From contig CAOKHZ010000007.1 of assembly GCA_948468385.1 (NCBI GenBank), positions 1 to 64,000 of the forward strand: 64,000 bases of DNA. The letters are read 5' to 3'. The notes beneath the pieces were generated by a model. The model saw only the letters and a program-made list of their open reading frames with translations, was not told the DNA's origin and did no database searches. Position numbers and translations under genes: made by a program. Below are positions 8,536 to 23,079 of the stretch, one piece after another; within the stretch, counting starts at the first letter, position 1, and each line of letters begins with the position of its first letter. Source of the stretch: an uncultured Faecalicatena sp. (GTDB lineage: Bacteria; Bacillota; Clostridia; Lachnospirales; Lachnospiraceae).

Positions 8536-8603
8536 AATTTTCTTCCTCCATAGTCATATTTCGCGTCCATGTGGCAATTACCCACCAACGGACGCGGCCA
8601 CGT

Positions 8604-8658
8604 AAAATCGGCAAACAGATTCATGAAATTTACTTATAAGAAACTGTCTGCCGATTTT
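8604..8658 (-). terminator. hairpin between isomerase-like gene and xylB
   Basis: A 15-bp inverted repeat with one mismatch (AAAATCGGCA / TGCCGATTTT arms) and a 25-base loop. T or A runs at both ends would let it work in either direction. It could be partial termination or a processing site. Confidence 0.5.
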
Positions 8659-8703
8659 CCCATGACCAATTCTCGTCACTTTACGTTATTTAGGAACTGT
8701 TCC

Positions 8704-10188
8704 TTACTTCCACGGATTCTCCGTCGGATATCTCACGCCGGCCGGCTGGTTGTAACCAATCTCCTCTACCGGAACTCCTACATACTTAAATACCTCGAAC
8801 AATGCCTTTCCGAAATTGCCGAATGCCACCGCGCCATGATGCGGGAAATTCTTCTCAATCAATACATGACGGTAGAAACGTCCCATCTCCGGAATCGCGA
8901 AGATACCGATTGCGCCAAAGGAACGTGTAGCTACCGGAAGAACCTCGCCCTGCGCGATGTAAGCGCGAAGCTTGCAGTCAGCCGTGCTCTGCAAACGGAA
9001 GAACGTGATGTCGCCCGGCTTGATGTCGCCTTCGAGCGTTCCCTGCGTCACTTCCTCCGGCAAAGAACGAGCCATGATCAACTGGTACTTCATCTCGCAG
9101 AAGGACAGCTTGCTGGAAGCGGTATTTCCACAGTGGAAGCCCATGAACGTATCCTTGTGCGCGTATGGGAACTTGCCCTCGATGTCTTCCTTGTACATGT
9201 CCGCCGGTACGCTGTTGTTGATGTCAAGCAACGTCACGACATCCTCGCTGACAACGGTTCCGATGAACTCGCTGAGTGCTCCGTAAATGTCCACCTCGCA
9301 GGAAACCGGGATGCCCTGGGCGGCCAGACGGCTGTTCACATAGCAAGGCACGAAGCCAAATTGCGTCTGGAATGCAGGCCAGCACTTTCCGGCGATGGTC
9401 ACGTACTTGCGGTATCCTCTGTGCTCCTCCACCCAATCCTTGAGCGTCAGCTCATACTGCGCCAACTTGGTAAGAATCTCCGGCTTCTTGTTGCCCGTTC
9501 CAAGTTCTTCTTCCATCTCTTTTACAAGTGCCGGAATCCTCTCATCGCCCGCATGCTTGTTGAACGCCTCAAACAAATCCAGTTCGGAGTTTTCTTCAAT
9601 CTCCACACCCAGGTTGTAAAGCTGCTGAATCGGTGCATTACAAGCCAAGAAGTTCAGCGGTCTCGGGCCAAAGCTGATAATCTTCAAGCTGTTAAGTCCA
9701 ACGATGGCTCTGGCAATCGGACGGAACTCATAAATCATGTCCGCACATTCCTCGGCGGTTCCCACCGGATACTCCGGAATGTAAGCCTTCACGCCGCGCA
9801 ATTTCAGGTTGTAGCTGGCATTGAGCATGCCGCAGTAAGCGTCTCCTCTTCCCTGAATCAGGTTGTCGCCGCTCTCCTCTGCCGCCGCCACGAACATCTT
9901 CGGTCCGTCAAAATGCTTTGCAAGCAACGTCTCGGAAATCTCCGGTCCAAAGTTTCCAAGGTATACGACCAACGCGTTACATCCTGCCGCCTTGATGTCC
10001 TCCAACGCTTGTACCATGTGGATTTCACTCTCCACGATACAAATCGGACACTCATAAATGCCCTCCTCGCCATATTTCTCCTTGTACGCCTTCATCAGAG
10101 CCTCGCGTCTGGAAACAGACAAGCTCTCCGGGAAGCAGTCTCTGCTGACCGCCACGACTCCGATTTTCAATTCTGGCATGTTACTCAT
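8704..10188 (-). CDS. L-fucose/L-arabinose isomerase superfamily protein
   Basis: A 494-residue protein with the fold pattern of the FucI/AraA ketol isomerases: an N-terminal alternating strand-helix domain (KIGVVAVSRDCFPES; NALVVYLGNFGPE) and a C-terminal domain carrying conserved acids and histidines (SCEVDIYGAL; GFHCGNTASSK; FFRLQSTADCK; FPHHGAVAFGNFG). These enzymes interconvert an aldose and a ketose with a divalent metal, often manganese. Together with the adjacent kinase this suggests isomerise-then-phosphorylate catabolism of a pentose or deoxyhexose. The actual sugar cannot be read from the sequence. AAAGGTGG precedes the ATG. Confidence 0.8.
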   Translation of the reverse strand: MSNMPELKIGVVAVSRDCFPESLSVSRREALMKAYKEKYGEEGIYECPICIVESEIHMVQALEDIKAAGCNALVVYLGNFGPEISETLLAKHFDGPKMFVAAAEESGDNLIQGRGDAYCGMLNASYNLKLRGVKAYIPEYPVGTAEECADMIYEFRPIARAIVGLNSLKIISFGPRPLNFLACNAPIQQLYNLGVEIEENSELDLFEAFNKHAGDERIPALVKEMEEELGTGNKKPEILTKLAQYELTLKDWVEEHRGYRKYVTIAGKCWPAFQTQFGFVPCYVNSRLAAQGIPVSCEVDIYGALSEFIGTVVSEDVVTLLDINNSVPADMYKEDIEGKFPYAHKDTFMGFHCGNTASSKLSFCEMKYQLIMARSLPEEVTQGTLEGDIKPGDITFFRLQSTADCKLRAYIAQGEVLPVATRSFGAIGIFAIPEMGRFYRHVLIEKNFPHHGAVAFGNFGKALFEVFKYVGVPVEEIGYNQPAGVRYPTENPWK

Positions 10189-10267
10189 GGTTATGTACCA
10201 CCTTTCTTTTTGATTACAGCCATCAGCTGCGATTTGTTATAATGTCATTTTTTTGATACCGACTGGA

Positions 10268-10882
10268 TTATACCGTTAAATTTTCACCCTTGAGCCCGCA
10301 GAACGCGCCCTCAATCTTCGCGTCCTCATGCGCGATCAACCATTTGTTCTTGGCAGTAATCAGACGATCCTCGCCATCCTCGCCAGGCGCGAACGTAAGC
10401 TCCGTGTTCGTCCCCGCCGGCAAAATCACCACGCAACGGAAACCACCTTCCGCAGCCGTACACGGCGCATAGTGAAGCGTCGTCGCATATACTTCAACCG
10501 CCGTCCCCGCCGGTACTAAAAATGCCTCCACACGGCCGGTATCATAACTATAATCCGCTTCGATATCCTGCTGCATTCCGATCAACAAAATCAAGTCTGT
10601 CACCGCCACGTTAATCTCCGACGAACGATGATACTCCAACGCGTTCAGCTTGTGGTTGTCCCCGTTGCAGTAACCAATCTGAATCGGCAGGCCGCCGTAC
10701 GCGCGCCGCTGAAAGTCCGCCGCCACCGGCAACGCCTCCAGTTCCTCCACCGACGGCACGTAAATCACGTCCTTCGGAAGCGGCGTATGTTCCATCTCCT
10801 TCAGCAGACGGCCAAGATCATAACCGTTCAAAACCTTGCCATACTTGCCGAAAGAAGCGTCAGTTACCTTTTGAATGTCCAT
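10268..10882 (-). CDS. DUF4867 family protein
   Basis: A 204-residue protein with a C-terminal cupin-like strand pattern (VEAFLVPAGTAVEVYATTLHYAPC, near residues 117-140, then CVVILPAGTNTEL). Length and sequence match the DUF4867 family, which occurs beside sugar isomerases and kinases in gut clostridia. A role as a sugar mutarotase, lyxose-isomerase-like enzyme or ligand sensor is possible but unproven. It is the promoter-proximal gene of the cluster, 80 bases ahead of the isomerase-like gene. TGGAGGTAT precedes the ATG. Confidence 0.75.
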   Translation of the reverse strand: MDIQKVTDASFGKYGKVLNGYDLGRLLKEMEHTPLPKDVIYVPSVEELEALPVAADFQRRAYGGLPIQIGYCNGDNHKLNALEYHRSSEINVAVTDLILLIGMQQDIEADYSYDTGRVEAFLVPAGTAVEVYATTLHYAPCTAAEGGFRCVVILPAGTNTELTFAPGEDGEDRLITAKNKWLIAHEDAKIEGAFCGLKGENLTV

Positions 10883-11338: not shown

Positions 11339-13399
11339 TCATATCTTCATCGCGGTCTCGTACGCGCCCCAGATTACGCTTCTTAGGTTTCCTATCTGTC
11401 GGCAGTCGCCAATCAGGTACACGTTCTTTTTCTTCTCATCCACCTTAATCGGATTTGAAATATATCCGGCAGAGGAAATCACGCTGTCACACTCGACGGT
11501 AACCTCTTTGCCGTTCTTGTCCGTGCATACCACGGCTCCTTCTTTGACTTCCTTCAGCATCGTCTCCAGATATACCGGAACCTTGTGCAACTCGAACCAC
11601 TCTCTCAAATAGGAGCTGTTCGCCAGACAGACGCCCTTCTGGGAAACCAGGTCGTCCTTCATCTCTATGATGATTGGCTCTTTGCCAAGCAATGCCAATT
11701 CGTAAGCAATCTCGCTTCCGGTCAAACCGCCGCCAATCACGGCCACTTTCTGACCCACTTCCGCGCCATTTAAGAACTCGCAGGCTTCCACCATCCGCTC
11801 ATGGCCGGGAACATTTCTCAAAATACGCGGTATAGACCCTGTCGCGACAATGATTGGCTCTTCACCGAAGCGCGCCAGGTCATTGACTTCCTCATTCAGA
11901 TGAATCTCAATCTGTAACTTCTCCATCTGCCGGCGATACCAGGCAAGAAGCTCTCGCAGCTTCCCTTTGTAAGACTCCGCACTGGCCGGAATAAAGGTGC
12001 CGCCCAGAACGTCGCTCTTCTCATAAATTACCGGCTTATGCCCCCGCAGCTTCAGTACGCGAGCCGCCTCCATACCGCCAATACCTCCGCCGATGATATG
12101 TACCCGCTTTGGTGTCGCCGTATGCTTAATCTTGTGCTTGTTCCACTGCATCGTCTCCGCATTGACCGCGCAACGAGCAAGATGTAAGCTGTCACTCAGT
12201 TCCTGGTCATTCGGAACACCCTTATAATGGCACATGTTGAAACATCCGTTATGGCACAAAATACATGGACGAATATCTTCCTCGCGGCCTTCCATCAGCT
12301 TGGTCACCCACTGCTGGTCAGCAAGGAACGGCCTCGCGAAACCGGCACCATCGAGCTTCCCTTCCTTGATGGAATCCGCCGCCGTGCCCGGATCCAGGCG
12401 GCCTGCGCAGACCACCGGAATGTTCACGAACTTCTTAATATGCTCCACGTCGGCAAGGTTACAGTTCTCCGGCATGTATACCGGCGGATGTGCCCAATAC
12501 CACGCATCATACGTTCCATTGTCACAGTTAAGCATGTCATAACCCGCATCCTGCAAATATTTTGCCGCGCGCTCCGACTCTTCCATGTCTCGCCCGACTT
12601 CCGTGTACTCTTCGCCCGGAAGCGCGCCCTGACGGAAGCCCTTGGTTTTCGATAATACGCTGTAACGCAAAGAAACCGGGAAATCATCACCGCATTCCCA
12701 CTTAATCGCCTTGACGATTTCCGTCGCGAAACGATAACGGTTTTCAAAAGATCCACCGTACTGGTCAGACCGGTGGTTGACGTATTTTAACGTAAACTGA
12801 TCCAACAAATACCCCTCGTGAACCGCGTGCACCTCCACTCCGTCCACGCCCGCGTCCTTCAACATCTTGGCACTCTTTGCAAAAGCCTCCACGAACTCGT
12901 GAATCTCGTCCACGGTCATCTCACGGGAAGGCACTTTATCCGACCAACGGTTGGGAGAAGGGCTGGCAGACGCGGTAATCTTATCCAAATCCATGAACGG
13001 TTTGGACAAAACGCGCAGGGCAGGATTCGTGTACAGCGTCTCCATCAGCTCGCTAATCGTAAAGGAACGCCCGAAGCCCGCCGTAAGCTGGACGAAAAGC
13101 TTCGCCCCGGTCTTGTGAAACTCCGGCATCCACTTTTTCAAATCCTGGTACATCTTCTGATTCTTGTGCAGCCACTGTCCAAACATCGGGTTATACACCG
13201 GCTGACAGCCCGGCAATACCAGGCCCGCGTTGTTTTTCGCCACTTCCATGATAAAGCGGGCTCCCGCCTTGTCAAAATGGTTCTTCTCCATCCATCCGAA
13301 CAAGTCCGTGCCGCCCATCGACGTGAGCACGATACGGTTCTTAATTTCACAATTTCCAATCTTCCACGGAGTAAACAACGGTTCCAGTCTTGCATCCAT
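11339..13399 (-). CDS. 2-enoate reductase-type flavoenzyme (FMN/FAD/4Fe-4S)
   Basis: A 686-residue member of the Old Yellow Enzyme family with a fused pyridine nucleotide-disulfide oxidoreductase domain, like clostridial 2-enoate reductases, FldZ and BaiCD. The N-terminal TIM barrel carries VEVHAVHEGYLLDQF. The iron-sulfur cysteines are in RPCILCHNGCFNMC (near 360-373) plus ARCAVN. Two dinucleotide motifs follow, IIGGGIGGMEAARVL and VIGGGLTGSEIAYEL. It reduces alpha,beta-unsaturated carboxylates with NAD(P)H. The start at 13399 follows AGGAGATGA. It is divergent from the dehydratase-type operon, so it could reduce an enoate related to that operon's product. Confidence 0.85.
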   Translation of the reverse strand: MDARLEPLFTPWKIGNCEIKNRIVLTSMGGTDLFGWMEKNHFDKAGARFIMEVAKNNAGLVLPGCQPVYNPMFGQWLHKNQKMYQDLKKWMPEFHKTGAKLFVQLTAGFGRSFTISELMETLYTNPALRVLSKPFMDLDKITASASPSPNRWSDKVPSREMTVDEIHEFVEAFAKSAKMLKDAGVDGVEVHAVHEGYLLDQFTLKYVNHRSDQYGGSFENRYRFATEIVKAIKWECGDDFPVSLRYSVLSKTKGFRQGALPGEEYTEVGRDMEESERAAKYLQDAGYDMLNCDNGTYDAWYWAHPPVYMPENCNLADVEHIKKFVNIPVVCAGRLDPGTAADSIKEGKLDGAGFARPFLADQQWVTKLMEGREEDIRPCILCHNGCFNMCHYKGVPNDQELSDSLHLARCAVNAETMQWNKHKIKHTATPKRVHIIGGGIGGMEAARVLKLRGHKPVIYEKSDVLGGTFIPASAESYKGKLRELLAWYRRQMEKLQIEIHLNEEVNDLARFGEEPIIVATGSIPRILRNVPGHERMVEACEFLNGAEVGQKVAVIGGGLTGSEIAYELALLGKEPIIIEMKDDLVSQKGVCLANSSYLREWFELHKVPVYLETMLKEVKEGAVVCTDKNGKEVTVECDSVISSAGYISNPIKVDEKKKNVYLIGDCRQIGNLRSVIWGAYETAMKI

Positions 13400-13551
13400 A
13401 AACAAATCATCTCCTTTTCTTATAATTTTCGCATTGTGCATGCCTGCGAACGCCTCCTCATAAACAATGCCGCATGCCAATACGACAAGTCAAAAGTTTT
13501 TTGACTCCCGTCTTGTTACCAGTACTGTCATTATAACAGCGTTTTGTTCAA

Positions 13552-13594
13552 GTTGCAATAAAAATGATAGTTTTTCCGATTATTTTGTTGCAAC
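13552..13594. promoter_or_regulatory. inverted repeat between enoate reductase and CooC-type operon
   Basis: Perfect arms GTTGCAA (13552-13558) and TTGCAAC (13588-13594) lie either side of an AT-rich 29-base spacer in the divergent intergenic region. This could be a binding site for a regulator controlling both operons; no regulator gene is adjacent. Confidence 0.4.
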
Positions 13595-13654
13595 CTGCCA
13601 ATGACTATGTTAAAATATTTTAAATCATTAAAATACGAAAAGGAGGCGGAGCCA

Positions 13655-14416
13655 TTGCACGAAACTACAATCATCGCTGCCGCCGGCAAGGGCGGCGTCG
13701 GGAAAACTTCCATCTGTGCGGCCATCGTCCGCCTGCTATGCCAATCCAAGCCAGATGCCAGAATTTTGGCCATTGACGCGGATCCTGCAGTGGGATTGGC
13801 CGCCGGGCTGGGCGTGGAGGCTGACTCCACGTTAGACGACATCCGCAAGCGCATCGTCGCCAGTGTGGAACAAGGCGAGCCCAAAGAGGCCATCGAACTT
13901 TTGGGGGAGGCACGGTTTCAGATTTTCGACACCATGGTGGAGAAGGAAGGATTTTCCTTCCTGGCCATTGGCAGACCCGAGAGCGCGGGATGCTACTGCA
14001 AGGTAAATGCTTATTTAAAGGAAGTCATTTCCTTGCTGGCACAAGATTTTGACTATGTGGTGATTGACGGGGAGGCAGGAATTGAACAAATCAACCGCCG
14101 GGTGATGGAGCAGGTGACGCACCTGATCCTGGTCACCGATCCTAGCCGGAAGGGGGTACAGGTAGTCAAGACGATTCAAAAAGTGGCACAGGAGCTTGTC
14201 ATGTACAAGCAATGCGGGGTCATCGTCAACCGGGTAAGCGATCCGTCCATGCTCGAACTGGTAGATCTCTCCCCGCTTGATTTGCTGACAAGCATTCCTG
14301 CCGACTCGCTTCACGCTTCCAACGAAGTGCGCGGACTGAGCGTATTTGAACTTGACGACGACGCGCTCTTATTAAAGGGGGCAAAAGAAGCTTTGGAGAA
14401 ATGGAATATTTTATAA
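13655..14416 (+). CDS. CooC-type nickel-insertion ATPase
   Basis: A 253-residue MinD/SIMIBI ATPase with the P-loop GKGGVGKT at residues 11-18 and a CYC pair at residues 113 and 115. In CooC proteins this Cys-X-Cys forms the metal site at the dimer interface, and CooC matures the nickel site of carbon monoxide dehydrogenase. A perfect AGGAGG lies 8 bases before a TTG at 13655, which is preferred over an ATG 18 codons upstream that has no ribosome-binding site. It is the first gene of an operon whose other members are dehydratase-type iron-sulfur enzymes, not a CO dehydrogenase. That makes its client unclear. Confidence 0.82.
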   Translation: MHETTIIAAAGKGGVGKTSICAAIVRLLCQSKPDARILAIDADPAVGLAAGLGVEADSTLDDIRKRIVASVEQGEPKEAIELLGEARFQIFDTMVEKEGFSFLAIGRPESAGCYCKVNAYLKEVISLLAQDFDYVVIDGEAGIEQINRRVMEQVTHLILVTDPSRKGVQVVKTIQKVAQELVMYKQCGVIVNRVSDPSMLELVDLSPLDLLTSIPADSLHASNEVRGLSVFELDDDALLLKGAKEALEKWNIL

Positions 14417-14441
14417 AAAAAGAAGAAAAGAGGTGTGACAC

Positions 14442-15644
14442 TTGAAAGACCTGAAGCATTTGATTTATTTTGAAGGCCTGCTGGAAAATGCGAACAATCC
14501 CTTGATTGAGCAGGCCAGAGCGGAGGGAAAGCTCGCCGTCGGCTATACTTGTTTCCACATGCCCGAAGTGCTTTTAAATCTTGACAATTGCTTTTCCGTC
14601 CGCCTGCGCGCGCCAAACACGGGATCCATGGACATCGCTACATACTATATGTCCAACTACACTTGTGAATTTTGCCGCGCGTTACTGGAGCGTTCCTTTG
14701 AAGGAGGCTTTAATTTCCTGGATGCCTTGGCCGGAGTGGACGCTTGCGCGGAAATGAATCGCTGTATGGAAAACATCGAGCTACAGAACCTGATTCCCAA
14801 CGAAAAGTTTTTCGTCACCCACGCGGACATCCCTTACAAGGTGGAAGACTTCACGATCGCCCACTATGTAAGACAGATAAAGAACCGCGTATTGAATCGC
14901 CTGAACGAGGTATACGGCGTGGACATCTCCGACGAGGCCGTCCGCAAGGCGGTGAAAGAACACAACGAGGTTTGTCGGATTATCACGGAAATCGGCAACT
15001 TGCGCAAACAGCCGAATCCCCCCATCACCGGTTACGAATTCCACGTACTCAACATGGTCACCTATTGCTGTCCGAAGTACCTGATTCTGGGCAAGTTAAA
15101 AGAAACCTTGACGGAAATCAAGAAGCGCAAGCCTGACGCGAAACCTTGGTATCGCGCCCGCGTCGCCCTGGTCGGCAGCGAAGTGGATGACTTGGGATTC
15201 ACGAAGCTGATTGAGGATTCCGGCGCGTTTATCGTGGCAGACCGTTTTTGTTTCGGTTCCACCCCGGGACGCGAGGAAATCATTCTAAACGACGAGGAGG
15301 ACGCGCTCACCCAGGTGTGCCGCCACTATCTGGAGGTATCCGAGTGCCCGCGCTTCATGAGCACTGAAAAAATCAGCCAGCGCCGCGAGACGGCAGACCG
15401 GCTGGCCCGCGAATACGGCGCGGAAGGCATTATATTTGAACAAATCAAGTTCTGTGACTTCTGGGCTTTCGAGAGGGCCTTGGCCAGCCATGTACAAGAG
15501 GCGGAATACGGCCATCCGGTGCTGTCCATCGACCGCCCGTACAACGCCCGCTCTTCGGGGCAGCTTCGTACCCGGATGCAGGCCTTCGTGGAGTCGCTGG
15601 AAATTAAACGTATCCAAAAGGGAGGAGGGAGCCCTCAATGCTGA
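14442..15644 (+). CDS. 2-hydroxyacyl-CoA dehydratase / benzoyl-CoA reductase family subunit, short type (copy 1)
   Basis: A 400-residue HgdB-like protein. Conserved cysteine-bearing segments are TCEFCRALLE near residue 72, ADRFCFGSTPG near residue 270 and EQIKFCDFWAFER near residue 344, the usual layout of iron-sulfur ligands in this family. Members carry out ATP-driven radical dehydrations or two-electron reductions, and some hold double-cubane clusters. It starts at a TTG 7 bases after AGAGGTG and overlaps the next gene by 7 bases. The paralogue at 21880-23079 is closely similar over its whole length. The substrate is unknown; a CoA ester is not assured. Confidence 0.8.
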   Translation: MKDLKHLIYFEGLLENANNPLIEQARAEGKLAVGYTCFHMPEVLLNLDNCFSVRLRAPNTGSMDIATYYMSNYTCEFCRALLERSFEGGFNFLDALAGVDACAEMNRCMENIELQNLIPNEKFFVTHADIPYKVEDFTIAHYVRQIKNRVLNRLNEVYGVDISDEAVRKAVKEHNEVCRIITEIGNLRKQPNPPITGYEFHVLNMVTYCCPKYLILGKLKETLTEIKKRKPDAKPWYRARVALVGSEVDDLGFTKLIEDSGAFIVADRFCFGSTPGREEIILNDEEDALTQVCRHYLEVSECPRFMSTEKISQRRETADRLAREYGAEGIIFEQIKFCDFWAFERALASHVQEAEYGHPVLSIDRPYNARSSGQLRTRMQAFVESLEIKRIQKGGGSPQC

Positions 15645-17377
15645 AAAACAATTTAAAATGGGCGAAGAAAAACATCCCCCAAGATTTAAAAATCTGGAAA
15701 GAATTGATTTCGGAAGTCGATTGGAAGGACGTGGGAAAGAAGCTTAAAAAGGACTTCGAAGCCACGAAGGAGCGAATCACGGACGAGGTAAAGACCGTGG
15801 CCGCCATGTCTGGTTCCGAACGTGTCGACTTGTTGATAAACGGTGAAAAGCATCTGGGACGCTTATACCAATCCGGGAAAATCGCCTTCACCAGACGTGA
15901 ATGGAAAGGCGTGGAGGGTACCGCCCGTGATTTCGTCGGTTGGCTGAAAATATGGGGCGCGATGTCCGCCATGGTCATGAAAGACCCCATTTCCATTGCC
16001 GAAGGCTTATTTGAATATCGATGGTTTAGTTCTTACCTGGCACTTCCCGCTTTTGCCGACCGCAACAACCTGGGACTTCGCGGCCCGCACGTCACCATGG
16101 CCAACGAACTGTTCCTACCCGTGTTCCGCTATGGTGCCGACATGATTGCCACGTTGCTTATGGCGGACGAGAGATTGGGCAACAACCCCAAAATCAGGGA
16201 AAAATTATTGCTCTTTGACGAAATGACGATGAGCCAGATGATGGCCGGCTTCCCGAACCTTGAGGGCGTGCCTTATCAATTGATGCCGGTATTTTTGGTA
16301 TCGGAAATTGACCAGTTGATTTGTATTCCTTATATTGATGCCGTGGAAAGCTTCGGGCTTCCTTCGGACACTTGTCCGGTGCCCACGTCCGAATGTGGTG
16401 CCGCCATCATGGACGCGCTTCCGCACTGTGGTCTGGGATTCATTTCCACGTCCACGCCGTGCGACGGCTCTGACATGGCAACCTCCTATCAGGACCGCCG
16501 TTTCAAGATGCCTACATACCCGCTGACGCTGCCGGTTCGCTACGATGACGAAGACACGGTAGACTGCGGTGCCGAGGACATGAAACGGTGTATCAAGTGG
16601 GTGGAAGACCTGACCGGTGAAAAATGGGATTGGGATCACTATTTCGAAGTCATCCGCCGTTTCAACGAGCAGACCAACTATGAGATGCACAAGTGGGAAA
16701 TCAACAAAACGCCATACCCGCAGGTAATCGGCCCGGCTTACGAGCTGTTCCGCAAATGGAGTTACGAGATGGACGGCGGCTTGTATCCCAGCACACACAA
16801 AACGTTCAAGAAGATTGACAAGATGATGGATCGCGCTTATGAAAAGCGCATGCAGCCTTACCGCGCGCCGATTCGCCACCGCGCCATCGTATGGAGCTGC
16901 CCGGCACACTATTACGCCAACTTTTCCAACTGGCTGCAAAACTGCTGGGGCATTGGCGTATTGGTAGAGATGGAAAGCCTGAACTTCACCAAGATGCTCA
17001 ACACCGACGACAAGGAAGAGGCCATCCGCGACCTGGCCAGGTTGTACGAACGCATGGTCATGCGCAAGCACACCAACGGCGGTCACGTCCACGTACTGGA
17101 AGAGTTGTGGAAGCAAGTGGAAGAATTTAACGTGGACATCGTAATCATGTACCAGCACGTATGTTGCAAGACCATGAGCGGCCTGCAGGGACTATTTGAC
17201 GAACAAGCGCGCGAACGCGGCATCCACCTTATCTGGGTGGAACACGACCTGATGGATCCACGTACGGTATCCCGCCGCGACATGCGCAGCAAGATTAACA
17301 ATTATATGGTAAATGTATTCCAGGAAGAACCGCTCGACCCATCCTTGGTAGAGTTCGAAGACGACGTGACCTGGTAA
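15638..17377 (+). CDS. 2-hydroxyacyl-CoA dehydratase family subunit, long type (copy 1)
   Basis: A 579-residue protein of the same superfamily, but with roughly 150 extra N-terminal residues beginning with a lysine-rich helical stretch. That is much longer than classic HgdA/HadC subunits of about 375-480. Cysteines cluster in LPSDTCPVPTSECG (near 238-251), STPCDGSD, and HVCCKTMSGL near residue 508. Gene overlap with the short subunit implies a two-subunit complex. The paralogue at 20096-21883 aligns without gaps around the point where that copy has a stop codon. The function is not established. Confidence 0.78.
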   Translation: MLKNNLKWAKKNIPQDLKIWKELISEVDWKDVGKKLKKDFEATKERITDEVKTVAAMSGSERVDLLINGEKHLGRLYQSGKIAFTRREWKGVEGTARDFVGWLKIWGAMSAMVMKDPISIAEGLFEYRWFSSYLALPAFADRNNLGLRGPHVTMANELFLPVFRYGADMIATLLMADERLGNNPKIREKLLLFDEMTMSQMMAGFPNLEGVPYQLMPVFLVSEIDQLICIPYIDAVESFGLPSDTCPVPTSECGAAIMDALPHCGLGFISTSTPCDGSDMATSYQDRRFKMPTYPLTLPVRYDDEDTVDCGAEDMKRCIKWVEDLTGEKWDWDHYFEVIRRFNEQTNYEMHKWEINKTPYPQVIGPAYELFRKWSYEMDGGLYPSTHKTFKKIDKMMDRAYEKRMQPYRAPIRHRAIVWSCPAHYYANFSNWLQNCWGIGVLVEMESLNFTKMLNTDDKEEAIRDLARLYERMVMRKHTNGGHVHVLEELWKQVEEFNVDIVIMYQHVCCKTMSGLQGLFDEQARERGIHLIWVEHDLMDPRTVSRRDMRSKINNYMVNVFQEEPLDPSLVEFEDDVTW

Positions 17378-17452
17378 ATTTTGCTACTATATATCCACGG
17401 CCATAGGCCACTCATAATAACAGTATTTCATTGTTAGAAAGGAGAAAATGTT

Positions 17453-18250
17453 ATGAAATATTATGGAGGATGTGACGTAGGTTCCACTTATACCAAAGCG
17501 GTTATCGTGGACGAAAACGGAAAAATAATGGCTCACACCACGATACGCAGCAAAATCAATTCGGAAGTATCGGCCCAGATTGCCATGGAAGAAGTCATCG
17601 GGCAGATTCCTGAGCTTGACAACGCGCAGAACCTGGCTTACCTTATCGGTACGGGTTACGGCCGCAACAAGGTTCCTTTTGCCGATGAAAACATTTCCGA
17701 GATTTCCTGCCACGCGATGGGCGTACATGTGACCGACCCGACGGTAAAGGCCATTATCGACATTGGCGGCCAGGACGTAAAAGGTATCAGCATCGACACG
17801 GATGGCACGGTGAAAAATTTCGCCATGAATGACAAGTGCGCCGCCGGAACCGGACGCTTCTTCGAAGCGATGGCCAGAAGTTTTGAGATGTCACTTACGG
17901 ACTTCTCAAATCTCTCCCTGACCGCGAAGAACGTGATTCCAATCACCGCCCAATGTACGGTGTTCGCCGAGAGCGAAGTCATCACCCTGGTGGGCGAGGG
18001 AAAACCGATGGACGAGATTGCCGCGGGTATTCAGATGGCCGTCGCGAAGCGGTGCTTCGTCATGGCGAAAAAGGCTGGAGCCACCACGGCCATTACCCTG
18101 ACCGGCGGCTGTGCCAAAAATGCCGGCCTGAAAAACGCAATCGAACATGTATTGAAGCTGAAGGTCATTGACCTGCCTATCGATCCCCAGCTGATGGGAG
18201 CCCTTGGCGCGGCGGAATACGCCAGGCAGAAAGGGCAGGCCAAATCATAA
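17453..18250 (+). CDS. ATP-dependent activase of the HgdC/BadF type
   Basis: A 265-residue ASKHA-fold protein: GGCDVGSTYTKAVIVD at residues 5-20, IDIGGQDVKG near 102, and LTGGCAKN in the C-terminal half. Two cysteines, C129 in NDKCAAGTGRF and C168 in AQCTVF, sit where HgdC ligates the [4Fe-4S] cluster at its dimer interface. Such activases inject electrons at low potential into dehydratase or reductase partners using ATP. AGAAAGGAGA precedes the ATG. This is the only activase in the region, so it probably serves both dehydratase pairs. Confidence 0.88.
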   Translation: MKYYGGCDVGSTYTKAVIVDENGKIMAHTTIRSKINSEVSAQIAMEEVIGQIPELDNAQNLAYLIGTGYGRNKVPFADENISEISCHAMGVHVTDPTVKAIIDIGGQDVKGISIDTDGTVKNFAMNDKCAAGTGRFFEAMARSFEMSLTDFSNLSLTAKNVIPITAQCTVFAESEVITLVGEGKPMDEIAAGIQMAVAKRCFVMAKKAGATTAITLTGGCAKNAGLKNAIEHVLKLKVIDLPIDPQLMGALGAAEYARQKGQAKS

Positions 18251-18271
18251 AGCCGGGAAAGGGAGTTTGCC

Positions 18272-18436
18272 ATGAAAAAACTGCTAAAATTATTGATTAA
18301 AATTTCCTGTATAACGTTAGGAGTACTATTTACGATTTATATGCTGAATCTGGATATGAAAGTCGTGGGATTTATCTATACCTGGCTCAACAAGTTCCAT
18401 GACAAGAAAGATTCCTTGCGGGATATCCAGTTCTAG
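18272..18436 (+). CDS. small single-helix membrane protein (copy 1)
   Basis: A 54-residue frame starting at an ATG 6 bases after GGGAG. It has a basic start (MKKLLKLLIK), one hydrophobic helix (ISCITLGVLFTIYMLNLD) and a charged tail. Its stop codon overlaps the GTG start of the next gene by one base. A similar protein lies in the opposite gene set at 19763-19978, sharing the pattern ILFTI-x3-NLD-x-K followed by LNK. Conservation of a tiny gene in both sets argues that it is real and part of the system, perhaps tethering the enzymes to the membrane. No known family is recognised. Confidence 0.7.
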   Translation: MKKLLKLLIKISCITLGVLFTIYMLNLDMKVVGFIYTWLNKFHDKKDSLRDIQF

Positions 18437-19164
18437 TGAAGCTGTTTGACTCCGTCATCACCGCCACGCAGACGCAACTTGATGCTTTTACGCCCCAAGT
18501 CTGGGACTACGAGGAACGTAAAGCCTGGCCGGACGTTGGCGTGAGTGAATTGGTACTGCAACGGGACGCGGCCTACGAGCTGGGAGGCAGCGGATTTCCC
18601 GCGGTAAACTTTACTTGTGTGACGACGGATAGCGATTTCATTGATCAAAATCAAGTACTGCTATATGGTTCGGATTTGGGGCGGCTGAAAAAAGACGCCC
18701 CTTACGCCAGAATCGCCTTGTTGCAGATAAAGCCTTTGGAAGGCGACGACGAGGCGGCCTATCGCGCCATCCGGGACATGGAATTCGTAAAATACCACGT
18801 ATTTCCCAAAGGATATATGTTTCGCATTTCCTCCGGGGACTTTCGGGAGCAGGTACGGGTGAGCAAAACCGCCTTGCGCAACGGAATTTCCTTCCAAGGC
18901 GTGGGTTTCGACTTTATCAGGCAATATTTAAAGAATCCAAACATCGTAAAGGTAAAACTCATCTTTGTCACGGAGCCGAAAGCTCCCTATAAACTGTTTC
19001 AGGACAGCGCGAAAAAGGCGAACGACATCACCAAGACACTGACGCACATCTTGGACGGGATGGCAACTGACTGTAGCGCTTGCAATTTGAAGCCCATATG
19101 CGACGAGGTGGAAGGCATGCGGGAATTACATTTCAAGCAGGCGAAAAAAGGAAAAGCACATTAA
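18436..19164 (+). CDS. protein related to the middle/A-cluster-proximal part of acetyl-CoA synthase beta
   Basis: A 242-residue soluble protein. From about residue 45 onward its order of motifs resembles the CdhC/AcsB region just before the A-cluster: YELGGSGFPAV, then NQVLLYGSDL, a conserved basic patch RVSKTALRNG, FVTEPK, and finally TDCSACNLKPIC with cysteines at 213, 216 and 222. AcsB has a comparable CxxC and a following Cys, but this protein ends before the remaining nickel ligands. So it resembles an isolated domain rather than an active synthase. The similarity is judged by eye from memory of AcsB. GTG start, overlapping the small membrane protein gene. Confidence 0.55.
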   Translation: MKLFDSVITATQTQLDAFTPQVWDYEERKAWPDVGVSELVLQRDAAYELGGSGFPAVNFTCVTTDSDFIDQNQVLLYGSDLGRLKKDAPYARIALLQIKPLEGDDEAAYRAIRDMEFVKYHVFPKGYMFRISSGDFREQVRVSKTALRNGISFQGVGFDFIRQYLKNPNIVKVKLIFVTEPKAPYKLFQDSAKKANDITKTLTHILDGMATDCSACNLKPICDEVEGMRELHFKQAKKGKAH

Positions 19165-19185
19165 TCTTTTCTTCATAACTACTCG

Positions 19186-19225
19186 CAAGGGAGGCCGTAA
19201 CCCCTACGGATTACGTCCTCCCTTG
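19186..19225. terminator. hairpin between convergent gene sets
   Basis: A 9-bp stem (CAAGGGAGG / CCTCCCTTG) is extended by CGTAA / TTACG around a small loop. It lies between the two convergent operons. It lacks a long T-run, so strength as an intrinsic terminator is uncertain. Confidence 0.55.
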
Positions 19226-19228
19226 TGA

Positions 19229-19426
19229 TTAACGCTCCACTGGCTCCACCAGAATCTTATTTTCCATCAAGTCCATGTTACGAAGCTTTCCCTCATATTC
19301 CGTGCGGATTCCCATGATATCAATAAACGTCAGCTTGTCTTGCTGAATCGAAACATTTGCCACGTTGCGGCACAAGAGTTCTTCCTCCCCTTGCGGCCGC
19401 CGCACGTACACGGCAGAAAGACACAT
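19229..19426 (-). CDS. CooT-like nickel-binding protein
   Basis: A 65-residue protein beginning MCLSAVY, with the cysteine at position 2 that defines CooT proteins, and the small beta-barrel pattern NVANVSIQQDKLTFIDI followed by GKLRNMDLMENKILVE. CooT from Rhodospirillum is 66 residues and helps deliver nickel to CO dehydrogenase. The ATG at 19426 places Cys at residue 2 and follows GGGGGAG. It lies 5 bases after the histidine-rich gene, so the two are surely co-transcribed. Together with CooC and the His-rich protein this recreates a cooC-T-J set without cooS. Confidence 0.75.
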   Translation of the reverse strand: MCLSAVYVRRPQGEEELLCRNVANVSIQQDKLTFIDIMGIRTEYEGKLRNMDLMENKILVEPVER

Positions 19427-19431
19427 GCTTC

Positions 19432-19728
19432 TCACTCCCCCTTCAACCCGGATAGCACCTGAGCGATTTTCTCATTGCCCCGTCCAAAATCTTCCACGGC
19501 GGCATAAATCAACTCTGCTTTCTCCTGCGGAAGGTTCGCCGCCAAGTCCTTCAACTCCTCGGCATGATGCCGGTTATGCCCCAACATGTACTCCAGCAAA
19601 GCCAGCACCTCCTTGTCGGAGACATCCTGAGCGTGGCCATGCAGATGTTCGTGCCCGTGATCGTGATGATGTCCGTGATCACCTGCGTGATTTTGCTCGT
19701 GTACGTTATCATGCCCATGCGTGTGCAT
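19432..19728 (-). CDS. histidine-rich CooJ-like metal-binding protein
   Basis: A 98-residue protein with 14 histidines in the first 32 residues (for example HGHHHDHGHEHLHGH at 18-32), then a helical domain with GHNRHHAEEL. CooJ has a comparable histidine-rich metal-storage segment, there at the C-terminus. Here it is N-terminal, so homology is not certain and the shared property may be only composition. AAAGGAGGGG lies 6 bases before the ATG at 19728. It sits between the small membrane protein and the CooT-like gene. Nickel storage or delivery is the natural inference; zinc or cobalt cannot be excluded. Confidence 0.65.
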   Translation of the reverse strand: MHTHGHDNVHEQNHAGDHGHHHDHGHEHLHGHAQDVSDKEVLALLEYMLGHNRHHAEELKDLAANLPQEKAELIYAAVEDFGRGNEKIAQVLSGLKGE

Positions 19729-19762
19729 GGCAATCCCCTCCTTTCTACTGTCAAAATACCCT

Positions 19763-19978
19763 TCACTGGTTCCGCCCTTTGATGGATTCCGCAAAATCCT
19801 TGCTCGGCATCACGTCGTAGTGGTACTTGTTCAAAATCGGCATAATCCGATAAAACAACTTGGTATCCAAATTAAAATAAAATATCGTAAAAAGTATCGC
19901 ATATGCCGCCAACGCGATTTTTACTATCAGCCAGACCAAACGCTTGATAGGACAACCGCAAGTTGTCTGCTTGCCCAT
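19763..19978 (-). CDS. small single-helix membrane protein (copy 2)
   Basis: A 71-residue protein: a short head with CGCP, one hydrophobic helix (LVWLIVKIALAAYAILFTIF) and a tail NLDTKLFYRIMPILNKYHYD. GGGAGG lies 7 bases before the chosen ATG at 19978. The helix end and following NLD-x-K and LNK elements match the 54-residue protein at 18272-18436, so these are paralogues, one in each dehydratase gene set. The extra N-terminal CxC could bind metal. No named family is recognised. Confidence 0.7.
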   Translation of the reverse strand: MGKQTTCGCPIKRLVWLIVKIALAAYAILFTIFYFNLDTKLFYRIMPILNKYHYDVMPSKDFAESIKGRNQ

Positions 19979-20095
19979 AGTCATTCCTCCCTTCATATTG
20001 CAATTAAGCACTCTGTAACCATACTCTGGTCACTTATATGGCCTCTACCCCGCACCTATTGGCAGGTATTCCGCGAGCCGTGCAAAGCCACATCT

Positions 20096-21883
20096 TTACC
20101 AGCCCCGACTATCATCAATCTCCAGAAGGGACGGATCCAGCGGTTCCTCGCCCATGACCGTGAACATGTAGTCGTTCACAATCTTGCGCATCTCGGCGCG
20201 CTCCACCGTCCGATGATCCAAAAGTTCGTGCGGCACCCAGATGGCGTGAATGTCCCTCTTACGATACTCGTCCTCGAACACGCCGTGAAGCTCCTGCGCT
20301 CCTTTGCAGGCCACCTGGTCGAACATGATGACCATGTCACAATTAAACTGCTCCATCGTGTCAAACACCTCGAGGAAATGCTCGTAACCGCCCACGGCGT
20401 GGGTACGCATCGCGCCCTTTTCATACATCTTGGCAAAATCAAGCAGGCACTGGTCACGATCCGAAGTGTCGATGATGTTGTGTCCCATCAACGAGTCCAT
20501 GTTAATCACCACGTTAATGCCCCAGCAATTGTACAGCCAGGTCGTCATGTAGGAATAATACAACGGCGCGCAAGACCATACCAGAGCGCGGTGGCGGGTC
20601 ATCGGAAACGTCACGATCTGTTTACTGACGCAACGATCCATGATCAGTTTGACCTTCCTGTCCGTCCTATGAAAGACCGGACGCTCGCCCACGTAAAAAT
20701 AGAAGATGCGGTAAAGCGCCTGCGCCACGGAGGACACCGGGCTATAAGGCGTTTTCGCCGCCACGTCCCACTTCTCCAGTTCAAAACGAGTCTGGTCATT
20801 AAACTTCTCAATTCGTTTATAGAACGTATCCCAATCCCACTTCATGTTCAAATGCGTTTCCATGAACTTGATGCACTCCAAAAACTCGTCAATCGTGTAC
20901 TGGTGCAATTCGTCCTCGTCATGCCGCATCGGCGCCGGGAAGGAATGGAACGGCTTGTTAAAGTAAAGTTCCTGCAAAATGGACGTTCCCACGGAACCGT
21001 CACAAGCCATGTTGTTGGCAATAAAACACGGGCTGAAATCCGGATAGTCATCCCGCACGCAGATTCCTGACTCGGCCGCGCACAAGGAACAAGCATCCGG
21101 CGGCAGCCCCACCGACTCCACCGCGTCGATGTACCACGGTATCGTCTGCTAGTTCACATGATTCTGCAAGAAACAAGTCGTCAACTGCACGCAGATGTCG
21201 TCCTTCAACTCAGGAAAGCCATAGGCAATATGCCCCGGAACCGTCTCGTCGTGTTGGAGCGTCTTGTACCAGCGTTCATTGCGCTTTCCGCCATGAAGCT
21301 TTGCATCGGCCAAAAACTGTGCATTAAGCTGACGGACGGAATCGTCAAACATGGCCAGGAAATGCAACGCGCTGGCTCGAAGCGCCGGCCCGCGCATTCC
21401 TTCATTTCCCCTGTCCACCCAGGAAATGCCGGAGAGATACGTCTCCATCCAGCGATAACGCCATAAGCCCTTGATAAAATAAATGTTCCCCTGGGCCAGA
21501 GTCCTTCCGATAAGCCCCAACATCCGAAGCCACACGGTAAAATAATAATTGGTGTCCACCACGCCGCGCCATTCTCGATGCTTGTAGACCCCCGTATCCC
21601 CGATGTACAACTCGCCCAGCCGACGCTCCCCGTGAGGAACGCCGTATAGAAAATCGCGAGCCAGCTTCAAGGCCTTCTCGCCGCTTACGGACACTTGTCC
21701 GTCCTTACGCACGATTGGCGTATATTCGTCAATAATTCGATCCGCGTGAGCCTTGGAGAAAAATTTTTCCCGGTCAGGTCCGTCATAAATCGGCGCGCAG
21801 AAATCTTTCACGATATTGCCGGCGGTATGTACCGTGCCCCTTACCGCTTTGGCGGCGGCGGCAATCTTCTTTACTGCTTTCAT
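20096..21883 (-). pseudogene. 2-hydroxyacyl-CoA dehydratase family subunit, long type (copy 2), interrupted by an in-frame TAG
   Basis: One continuous 596-codon frame is interrupted only by a TAG at 21151-21149 (codon 245). Both halves align to the 579-residue paralogue at 15638-17377 with no gap across the stop: VFLVSEIDQLIC there matches CFLQNHVN-stop-QTI here, so the TAG sits where the paralogue has Gln226 (CAG). The downstream part keeps cysteines in LPPDACSLCAAESG and ACDGSVG. Options are a recent nonsense mutation, a sequencing error, suppression or readthrough, or a pyrrolysine codon. I see no frameshift or other decay. If not read through, the product is a 244-residue fragment. Confidence 0.75.
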
Positions 21884-23079
21884 GATTCTCCAGCTCCCTT
21901 CTGTATTTTTTTAATCTCCAGGCTTTCGACAAAGGCCTGAAACCGCGTACGCAACTGTCCAAAGGCATTATTGTTATAATCCTTTTCTATCGAGCAACAC
22001 GGAATCCCATAGTCACCCGTCAAAATCAGGCTATCCGCCACGCGCTCGTACCCCCAGTATTCGCAGAACTTCATCTGTTCCAATATGACGCCGTCCGCAT
22101 GATATTCGTCATACAAATTCTTAAGGTAACGCTTCCTGCCATGAACCACCTCCGTGCCCATGTAACGCGGGCACTCGCTATGTTCCAAATAATGACGGGC
22201 AATAGATTTGAGCACCGGCTCCCCTTCTTTCAACACAATGGGCTCCCGTCCCGGCAGTGAACCGTAACAATGGCGATCCGCCACCACCAACGCGCCGCAG
22301 CTCTCAATCAGCTTGGTAAATTCAGGGTCGTCATTCTCGCTGCCGGCCAACACCACGCGCACTTTCCAGCCCGGCTTTTCATCCGGTTCCCGGGTCTTCA
22401 GCTCCTCCAACGTTTCCCGCAGCTTGTCAATGACGAGATATTTCGGGCAGACCAATGATACCAGGTTGATAACATGAAATTCATATCCGGTAATCGGCGG
22501 GTTGGGCAGTTTCCGCATTTCCCCGATTTCTGAAATAATCCCGCACAACTCATTATGCTCCTTGACGGCGGCAAGGACGGCCTCGTCCGAAATGTCGACT
22601 CCGAGCCTTTCATGTAACGGTTCCAGCACATAATTCCGAAGCTGCGTGGCGTAGTGGTCGACGTTGCTGCGCACCTCCTTCTTGTGCGGCACGTCAATGA
22701 ACGTCACGAAAAACTTTGGATTGTCCACCAACCCCAATATTTCAAGATGCTCTTGGAAACGATTGGTAGCGGTACAAGTCTCGGTAGCAAGCTGGGCGTC
22801 TAAAAAATGGTATCCGCCCTCAATGGCCCTCTCAAGCAAGGATCTGGCATACGGGCAACTACGGTTGGACATGTAATAACTGGCGATGTCCGGGGACGAA
22901 CTTCTCGGCGCCCTCAAGCGGACGCTAAAACATCCTGGCAAATCCAAAAGAACCTCCGGCATAAAATAGCAGGTATACCCCAAGGCCAGCCGCCCCTCCT
23001 CCTTGGCCTGCCGTACCAGCACGTTATTTGCTTCTTGCAGCAAATCTTCAAATTCGATTAAATACTTTAAGTCTCTCAC
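21880..23079 (-). CDS. 2-hydroxyacyl-CoA dehydratase / benzoyl-CoA reductase family subunit, short type (copy 2)
   Basis: A 399-residue paralogue of the protein at 14442-15644, similar from end to end. It opens with RDLKYLIEFEDLLQEANN and has cysteine segments CPYARSLLERAIEGG, DRHCYGSLPGRE and EQMKFCEYWGYERV in the same places. It overlaps the long-type gene by 4 bases (ATGA). This is the first gene of the minus-strand set, driven by the promoter at 23167-23194. The set has no activase of its own, so it presumably depends on the one at 17453-18250. Confidence 0.8.
   Translation of the reverse strand: MRDLKYLIEFEDLLQEANNVLVRQAKEEGRLALGYTCYFMPEVLLDLPGCFSVRLRAPRSSSPDIASYYMSNRSCPYARSLLERAIEGGYHFLDAQLATETCTATNRFQEHLEILGLVDNPKFFVTFIDVPHKKEVRSNVDHYATQLRNYVLEPLHERLGVDISDEAVLAAVKEHNELCGIISEIGEMRKLPNPPITGYEFHVINLVSLVCPKYLVIDKLRETLEELKTREPDEKPGWKVRVVLAGSENDDPEFTKLIESCGALVVADRHCYGSLPGREPIVLKEGEPVLKSIARHYLEHSECPRYMGTEVVHGRKRYLKNLYDEYHADGVILEQMKFCEYWGYERVADSLILTGDYGIPCCSIEKDYNNNAFGQLRTRFQAFVESLEIKKIQKGAGES

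What the first reader, a model, noticed from the sequence alone, without database searches (positions are those of the whole stretch)
11339..23079. Nickel-maturation genes combined with two dehydratase/benzoyl-CoA-reductase-type enzyme sets and no CO dehydrogenase
Seen: two convergent operons each encode a ~400-residue and a ~580-residue member of the HgdB/BcrB superfamily and a one-helix membrane protein. Between and around them are an HgdC-type activase, a CooC ATPase with the CYC metal pair, a CooT-like protein, a His-rich protein, an acetyl-CoA-synthase-beta-like domain and a divergent 2-enoate reductase. Known: CooC, CooT and CooJ mature nickel sites in CO dehydrogenase; HgdC-type activases drive iron-sulfur dehydratases and double-cubane proteins. 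Inference: this is a reductase system that may use nickel, or double-cubane clusters needing a nickel-type ATPase, with an unknown small-molecule or acyl substrate. The 580-residue subunit is much larger than any characterised family member I know of.
Basis: partly seen in the sequence, partly recalled or inferred. Interest (0 to 1): 0.92.

Follow-up and report, generated by a model that had tools for sequence, protein, structure and literature searches.

The report
Nickel-chaperone-linked ATP-driven iron-sulfur reductase operon
A gut bacterium carries a conserved gene set that couples an ATP-powered iron-sulfur reductase to helper proteins otherwise known from nickel-dependent carbon monoxide dehydrogenase, although no such dehydrogenase was found in its genome, which points to an undescribed and possibly nickel-using enzyme.

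Summary
In detail: window 11339-23079 has two convergent sets, each with a ~400-residue and a ~580-residue HGD-D subunit and a one-helix protein, around one HgdC-type activase, with CooC-like ATPase, CooT, His-rich protein, ACS-like domain and FMN/FeS reductase.

The neighbourhood is conserved: 56 of 61 loci with room on both sides hold CooC, both subunits, activase and ACS-like protein. CO dehydrogenase (CooS) was not found in this genome; it is over cut-off in 4 of 42 carrier genomes, but in 5 of 11 near-complete carriers, so the cassette does not need it.

Most likely: an ATP-driven double-cubane reductase, probably membrane-tethered, whose maturation uses nickel-type chaperones. Nickel is inferred from gene association only, and the substrate is unknown. 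HypA beside a third pair mostly follows a flavoprotein.

The parts
11339..13480 (-). FMN/FeS/NAD(P)H reductase of the 2-enoate reductase / BaiCD / bilirubin reductase type (OYE), divergent to the CooC gene
   Evidence: Pfam Oxidored_FMN and Pyr_redox_2; best NCBIfam BaiCD 336.6 bits, far under its cut-off of 825; within reach of LARGE in 16 of 79 loci
13601..14416 (+). CooC-like ATPase with CYC motif
   Evidence: best solved relative CooC 3kje, E 4.2e-16; CYC in 64 of 66 and GKGGVGKT in 66 of 66 orthologues
14442..15644 (+). SMALL, double-cubane-type subunit, first set
15638..17377 (+). LARGE, catalytic-type subunit with N-terminal extension, first set
17453..18250 (+). HgdC-type activase (ATPase, electron donor)
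   Evidence: TIGR00241 208.7 bits, cut-off 125.4; the two cysteine motifs in 66 and 67 of 67 orthologues
18272..18436 (+). one-helix membrane protein, first set
   Evidence: peak 19-residue hydropathy 2.1; 43 of 44 clustered homologues over 1.6; in 71 of 79 loci
18436..19164 (+). ACS-like protein (ACSL): middle domain of acetyl-CoA synthase followed by CxxCx5C
   Evidence: CxxCx5CDE in 62 of 65 orthologues
19229..19426 (-). CooT with Cys2
   Evidence: Pfam CooT 63.2 bits, cut-off 27
19432..19728 (-). His-rich small protein (CooJ-like in composition only)
   Evidence: no Pfam family; homologues in 12 of 79 loci, all 12 with CooT
19763..20011 (-). one-helix membrane protein, second set
   Evidence: peak hydropathy 2.4; read
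20096..21883 (-). LARGE, second set, interrupted by an in-frame TAG at 21149-21151
   Evidence: intact relatives of the second set exist in L024, L025 and G285
21880..23079 (-). SMALL, second set
   Evidence: HGD-D 309.9 bits; groups with the second-set SMALL of L024, 100/98

Best explanation
The block encodes an ATP-driven low-potential reductase of the benzoyl-CoA-reductase / 2-hydroxyacyl-CoA-dehydratase superfamily, probably held at the membrane by a one-helix protein. The activase hydrolyses ATP and passes electrons to a double-cubane cluster in the 400-residue subunit; from there they go to an open [4Fe-4S] site in the 579-residue subunit, where the substrate is reduced, perhaps under the lineage-specific N-terminal extension. 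CooC, and where present CooT and the His-rich protein, load nickel, most likely into this enzyme, with the ACS-like protein as carrier, scaffold or partner. The flavin reductase probably supplies electrons or acts on the product. Shown by computation: gene content, conservation, folds, cluster ligands, presence without CODH. Inferred: electron path, membrane tether, nickel insertion and its target. The substrate is unknown.
Against: No metal data. 5 of 11 carriers at least 90% complete do have CooS, so CooC and CooT could serve CODH in those. CooT and the His-rich protein are missing from most loci (15 and 12 of 79). CooT without CooS also occurs in 7 genomes without LARGE. The two further SMALL-LARGE pairs of this genome have no CooC gene beside them, so the fold as such may not need CooC there. 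Extra conserved cysteines do not clearly track CooC. HypA follows a flavoprotein more than this enzyme.
Confidence: 0.5

Rival explanations
1. The CooC-like ATPase and CooT do not handle nickel here. They assemble an iron-only or other-metal cluster (the double cubane, or an enlarged one using extra cysteines) of an otherwise known type of reductase.
For: SMALL has extra conserved cysteines (C50 46 of 46, C178 and C210 45 of 46 rows). CooC belongs to the MinD/ParA-type ATPases, and the generic matches are of that kind. No metal data exist.
Against: BzdNO with its double cubane was made in E. coli from a plasmid described as encoding BzdNO (passages of PMC11971306), so CooC is not needed for that cluster there. 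CooT binds nickel in R. rubrum (passages of PMC6006190). The extra cysteines also occur in pairs without CooC.
Confidence: 0.25
2. The pair is not the final enzyme but an ATP-driven reductive activator of a nickel site in a partner, possibly ACSL, in the way the MCR activation complex reduces nickel in F430.
For: ATP-driven Fe-S electron transfer to nickel is known from the MCR activation complex (passages of PMC12176620). ACSL is an ACS middle domain with a conserved CxxCx5C and sits in the operon.
Against: ACSL has 242 residues and ends soon after CxxCx5C, so it has no complete A-cluster domain. LARGE keeps the three ligands of an open catalytic cluster.
Confidence: 0.12
3. An ordinary 2-hydroxyacyl-CoA dehydratase or benzoyl-CoA reductase with coincidental neighbours.
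For: Same superfamily and fold.
Against: Conserved neighbourhood; separate clades; far below the NCBIfam cut-offs for HadBC, Bzd and Bcr models; the BCR catalytic histidine is not matched.
Confidence: 0.08
4. The Coo genes serve a CO dehydrogenase that lies elsewhere in these genomes or in the missing part of this one.
For: This genome is 94.4% complete in 62 contigs. CooS is present in 5 of 11 carriers at least 90% complete.
Against: No Prismane or TIGR01702 match here; 6 of the 11 near-complete carriers have no CooS over cut-off, while CooC sits in the cassette in 71 of 79 loci.
Confidence: 0.05

Closest known systems
Class I benzoyl-CoA reductase BzdNO / MbdNO
   Different: Catalytic His131 not matched, N-terminal extension on LARGE, one-helix protein, CooC/ACSL in the operon, single activase gene instead of two
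2-hydroxyisocaproyl-CoA dehydratase HadBC with HadI
   Different: HadC lacks a cysteine at the C270 position (alignment); neither subunit nests with HadBC
Double-cubane cluster protein DCCP with DCCP-R
   Same: All six cluster ligands in SMALL; double_cubane is the best NCBIfam model for SMALL, 127.9 bits, but under its cut-off of 350
   Different: DCCP is described as homodimeric (passages of PMC11971306); here two different subunits, LARGE with three ligands only
CODH/ACS maturation set CooC-CooT-CooJ and acetyl-CoA synthase
   Same: CooC and CooT homologues, a His-rich protein and an ACS middle domain
   Different: No CooS in this genome; ACSL is a fragment-sized protein
Methyl-coenzyme M reductase activation complex
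   Same: Works like, at most: ATP-driven electrons through complex Fe-S clusters towards nickel (passages of PMC12176620)
   Different: The activase scores 89 bits with methan_mark_15 against 208.7 with the acyl-CoA dehydratase activase model; no Mcr protein was seen among the genes read or scanned in the block

Membership tests
HGD-D superfamily (PF06050) | Match over the curated cut-off | tested here: met
   290.7, 133.7, 309.9 and 91.9 bits against 28.4
Double-cubane subunit (BzdN/DCCP type) | Six cysteine ligands of the [8Fe-9S] cluster | tested here: met
   BzdN C36/73/100/263/293/327 align with C37/75/102/270/302/338, present in 46 of 46 rows
Double-cubane subunit (BzdN/DCCP type) | Presence of the [8Fe-9S] cluster itself | not testable with these tools
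   needs purified protein
Double-cubane-cluster anaerobic reductase (NF040772) | Score over the equivalog cut-off | tested here: not met
   127.9 (SMALL), 144.7 (SMALL2), 47.2 (LARGE) bits against 350
Class I benzoyl-CoA reductase (Bzd/Mbd/Bcr) | Three cysteine ligands of the catalytic [4Fe-4S] cluster | tested here: met
   C246, C275, C510 in 51 of 51 rows; alignment to MbdO, HadB, BzdO, C275 within one residue of BzdO C128
Class I benzoyl-CoA reductase (Bzd/Mbd/Bcr) | Catalytic His131 of BzdO | tested here: not met
   falls on Gly277 or Ser278, depending on a one-residue register
Class I benzoyl-CoA reductase (Bzd/Mbd/Bcr) | Catalytic Glu65 of BzdO | tested here: inconclusive
   extrapolated four residues beyond the printed alignment to about Pro217 (47 of 51 rows)
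2-hydroxyacyl-CoA dehydratase (HadBC/FldBC) | Nesting with HadBC/FldBC in a tree | tested here: not met
   LARGE 17 of 17 and SMALL 16 of 16 sampled rows form their own clades beside HadB and HadC; FldBC not included; long branches
Acyl-CoA dehydratase activase (TIGR00241) | Score over cut-off and both cluster cysteine motifs | tested here: met
   208.7 bits against 125.4; motifs in 66 and 67 of 67
CooC nickel ATPase | Deviant Walker A and CxC metal motif | tested here: met
   66 of 66 and 64 of 66 orthologues; closest solved structure CooC
CooC nickel ATPase | Nickel binding | not testable with these tools
   needs purified protein
CooT (PF10133) | Score over cut-off and Cys2 | tested here: met
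   63.2 bits against 27; MCLS start when read from the internal ATG
CooJ | Sequence relationship to CooJ | not tested
   only the His-rich composition was seen; no CooJ model or sequence was compared
Acetyl-CoA synthase | Middle (CdhC) domain | tested here: met
   profile match to ACS structures, E 1e-8; CdhC in 22 of 23 orthologues at E<=0.1, window copy under the cut-off
Acetyl-CoA synthase | Complete A-cluster domain behind the middle domain | tested here: not met
   the protein has 242 residues and ends 20 residues after the third cysteine of CxxCx5C

The most novel reading that the evidence does not exclude
This is the first nickel-dependent member of the benzoyl-CoA-reductase / hydroxyacyl-CoA-dehydratase superfamily: an ATP-driven reductase that combines a double-cubane cluster with a nickel-containing catalytic site in an enlarged subunit, matured by CooC/CooT-type proteins shared with the CODH/ACS world, and found mainly in gut Clostridia. 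(Probability lowered from 0.40 to 0.37 after the recount showed CooS in 5 of 11 near-complete carriers.)
Probability: 0.37. Interest if true: 0.92.

Novelty: new variant of a known kind. Interest (0 to 1): 0.75.

Why it matters
Few enzymes are known to use nickel (recalled), and the CooC ATPase is discussed in the papers seen here as a CO dehydrogenase maturase. A conserved operon that pairs CooC with a double-cubane reductase, also in genomes where no CO dehydrogenase was found, either adds a nickel enzyme to the superfamily that performs some of the hardest ATP-driven reductions or shows another job for CooC; both can be tested directly. Most carriers found are gut or rumen Clostridia, so the missing substrate may be a diet-, host- or microbe-derived compound. 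The one-helix partner and the N-terminal extension of the large subunit are further features without a counterpart in the solved relatives.

Tried and rejected
HypA as a second nickel witness: not used as strong evidence. HypA lies behind the third pair (contig C12), but of 30 HypA loci (1.5 kb flanks) 22 have a GltD-like Fe-S flavoprotein and 2 have LARGE in view. HypA is over cut-off in 28 of 42 carriers, [NiFe] hydrogenase in 7 of 42.

Extra cysteines as a cassette-specific nickel site: not supported. LARGE C421 34 of 39 rows with a full cassette against 8 of 12 others, C436 37 of 39 against 12 of 12; SMALL C50, C178, C210 nearly everywhere. The 'others' include loci cut by contig ends, so the contrast is weak.

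TAG in the second large subunit as recoding: not favoured. TAG ends the first-set one-helix gene in the same block, and of 10 other large-subunit loci checked none has a stop at that place (L103 shows one only upstream of its start).

A fully fixed gene order: mended. CooC lies upstream of SMALL in most loci but downstream, behind CooT, in L077, L082, L088, L089 and L091, and downstream in L085.

Apparent loss of SMALL in several loci was an artefact of my ORF picker: tblastn found SMALL in 79 of 79, 77 of 79 with a 40% length filter.

Plasmids: SMALL has no tblastn match at E 1e-30 in 72,556 plasmid records. No match outside the superfamily stood clear of the background rows; the N-terminal extension was not folded alone.

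Literature: searches (open-licence PMC texts; listings only) showed no description of this operon. Passages were read from PMC11971306 (one section in full), PMC13056359, PMC12176620, PMC6006190, PMC12289521 and PMC7306483.

Sampling limits: of 336 relatives the best 80 (79 loci) were kept. Of these, 36 went into the whole-genome search and 35 into, chosen by hand for contig length and spread, plus 7 genomes. Carriers were chosen by LARGE, not by a checked cassette: in G020 only the pair, a one-helix and a His-rich gene are in view. G008 and G061 have identical CooS coordinates and were counted once. Most carriers are metagenome assemblies of undisclosed completeness. The Fisher test ignores relatedness, and its two groups were drawn differently.
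Full report
What is there. Window 11339-23079 (contig C7 of a 4.25 Mb genome, 94.4% complete) holds a plus-strand operon: CooC-like ATPase, 400-residue subunit (SMALL), 579-residue subunit (LARGE), HgdC-type activase, one-helix protein, ACS-like protein (ACSL). Convergent to it lies a minus-strand set: SMALL2, LARGE2, one-helix protein, His-rich protein, CooT. A minus-strand FMN/FeS reductase (OYE) lies upstream of the CooC gene. LARGE2 is interrupted by one in-frame TAG. Two more SMALL-LARGE pairs lie on contigs C35 and C12. They have no CooC or ACSL gene in the 18 kb read around each, but a 910- or 933-residue GltD-like Fe-S flavoprotein, and on C12 also a HypA.

Conservation. A scan of genome contigs (84,980 species genomes) gave 336 relatives of LARGE; the best 80 were kept as 79 loci. 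Most are labelled Clostridia or its families, many from gut or rumen; single records are labelled Solobacterium, Erysipelotrichaceae, Christensenella, Spirochaetaceae, Bacteroides, Vallitalea, Clostridium algidicarnis and Blautia parvula. In most loci the order is CooC-SMALL-LARGE-activase-TM-ACSL; in L077, L082, L085, L088, L089 and L091 CooC lies downstream. By tblastn, of 79 loci: SMALL 77 (79 without a length filter), activase 72, CooC 71, one-helix 71, ACSL 68, OYE 16, CooT 15, methyltransferase/ECF 14, His-rich 12. Of the 61 loci with at least 2.4 kb upstream and 2.3 kb downstream of LARGE, 56 hold CooC, SMALL, LARGE, activase and ACSL. The 12 loci with the His-rich protein all have CooT. 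Solobacterium L025 repeats the whole content in another order, second pair included; Butyrivibrio L024 also carries two pairs, OYE, CooT and the His-rich protein. In a broad sample LARGE is rare: 7 of 393 genomes of the class.

Relation to CO dehydrogenase. This genome has no Prismane-family and no TIGR01702 match. Of 42 distinct LARGE-bearing genomes 4 have CooS over cut-off, 7 have [NiFe] hydrogenase, and urease gives only two weak, stop-interrupted matches over cut-off. Against a simple picture: of the 7 LARGE genomes in the class sample, all in a set filtered for 90% completeness, 4 do have CooS (G253, G347, G362, G437), and of the 11 distinct carriers known to be at least 90% complete 5 have CooS and 6 do not. 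So the cassette occurs with and without CODH. CooT is over cut-off in 46 and CooS in 80 of 393. CooT occurs in 35 of 76 genomes with CooS and no LARGE, in 11 of 38 LARGE-bearing genomes without CooS, and in 7 of 310 with neither; the last two differ at p 1.2e-7, with the caveats of relatedness and different sampling. In 8 of those 11 (G000, G001, G020, G064, G065, G066, G085, G093) CooT lies near LARGE; in 3 it was not seen there.

Accessory proteins. Activase motifs in 66 and 67 of 67; CYC in 64 of 66 CooC-like proteins, whose nearest solved structure is CooC. CooT has Cys2; in R. rubrum Cys2 of CooT binds nickel, and mutants in CooC, CooT or CooJ need added nickel; 85 of 111 CooT-bearing proteomes held CODH, so CooT without CODH was already on record (passages of PMC6006190). 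ACSL matches ACS residues about 336-484 followed by CxxCx5CDE in 62 of 65. Its first two cysteines follow the domain at about the spacing of the first two A-cluster cysteines of ACS, whose numbers I recall and could not confirm in the library.

Mechanism. By analogy with BzdNO and DCCP (passages of PMC11971306) the activase should inject electrons into the SMALL double cubane and from there into the LARGE [4Fe-4S] site; as a class of mechanism I hold this at about 0.9. That CooC and CooT supply nickel to it is the best reading of the linkage but has no metal evidence; I hold it at about 0.4 to 0.5. A double cubane formed in E. coli from a plasmid described as encoding BzdNO, which weakens the idea that CooC is there for the double cubane. 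The extra cysteines do not clearly track CooC, and HypA goes with a flavoprotein more than with this enzyme.

Novelty. Known kind: activase-driven double-cubane / [4Fe-4S] reductases. New in combination: enlarged catalytic subunit, one-helix partner, and conserved coupling with CooC, an ACS-domain protein and in part CooT, also where no CODH was found. No description was found in the open-licence library; subscription literature was not searched, and the double-cubane review PMC7317905 is not held.

Noticed in passing
window 20096-21883 (-): The second-set large subunit gene is interrupted by one in-frame TAG. In L022, a close relative with 99.7% identical LARGE, SMALL2 and LARGE2 have no match of their own and the AraC-type gene follows soon after CooT and the His-rich gene, so the second set is recently gained or lost.
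   Followed up: partly
L014:7973-14313 (contig C12): A third SMALL-LARGE pair is followed by a one-helix protein, a HypA nickel chaperone (102 bits) and a 933-residue GltD-like Fe-S flavoprotein.
   Followed up: partly
L013:4389-11491 (contig C35): A fourth SMALL-LARGE pair lies beside a 910-residue GltD-like flavoprotein and a DUF5692 membrane protein (474.6 bits).
   Followed up: partly
L107-L136: HypA genes in these Clostridia mostly sit beside the GltD-like Fe-S flavoprotein (22 of 30 loci), while [NiFe] hydrogenase is found in only 7 of 42 genomes: an unexplained HypA-flavoprotein link.
   Followed up: partly
L035:3798-5054: An ECF transporter S component fused to a SAM-dependent methyltransferase; the two families, fused or separate, occur near the cassette in 14 of 79 loci.
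   Followed up: no
L025:16545-18401: An HtpG/Hsp90-like gene (named by eye) lies inside the second-set cluster of Solobacterium, between the one-helix gene and the His-rich/CooT/OYE genes.
   Followed up: no
window 7066-10882 (-): Sugar kinase, sugar isomerase-like gene and a small protein gene form a probable sugar operon next to the block; named by eye, not scanned.
   Followed up: no
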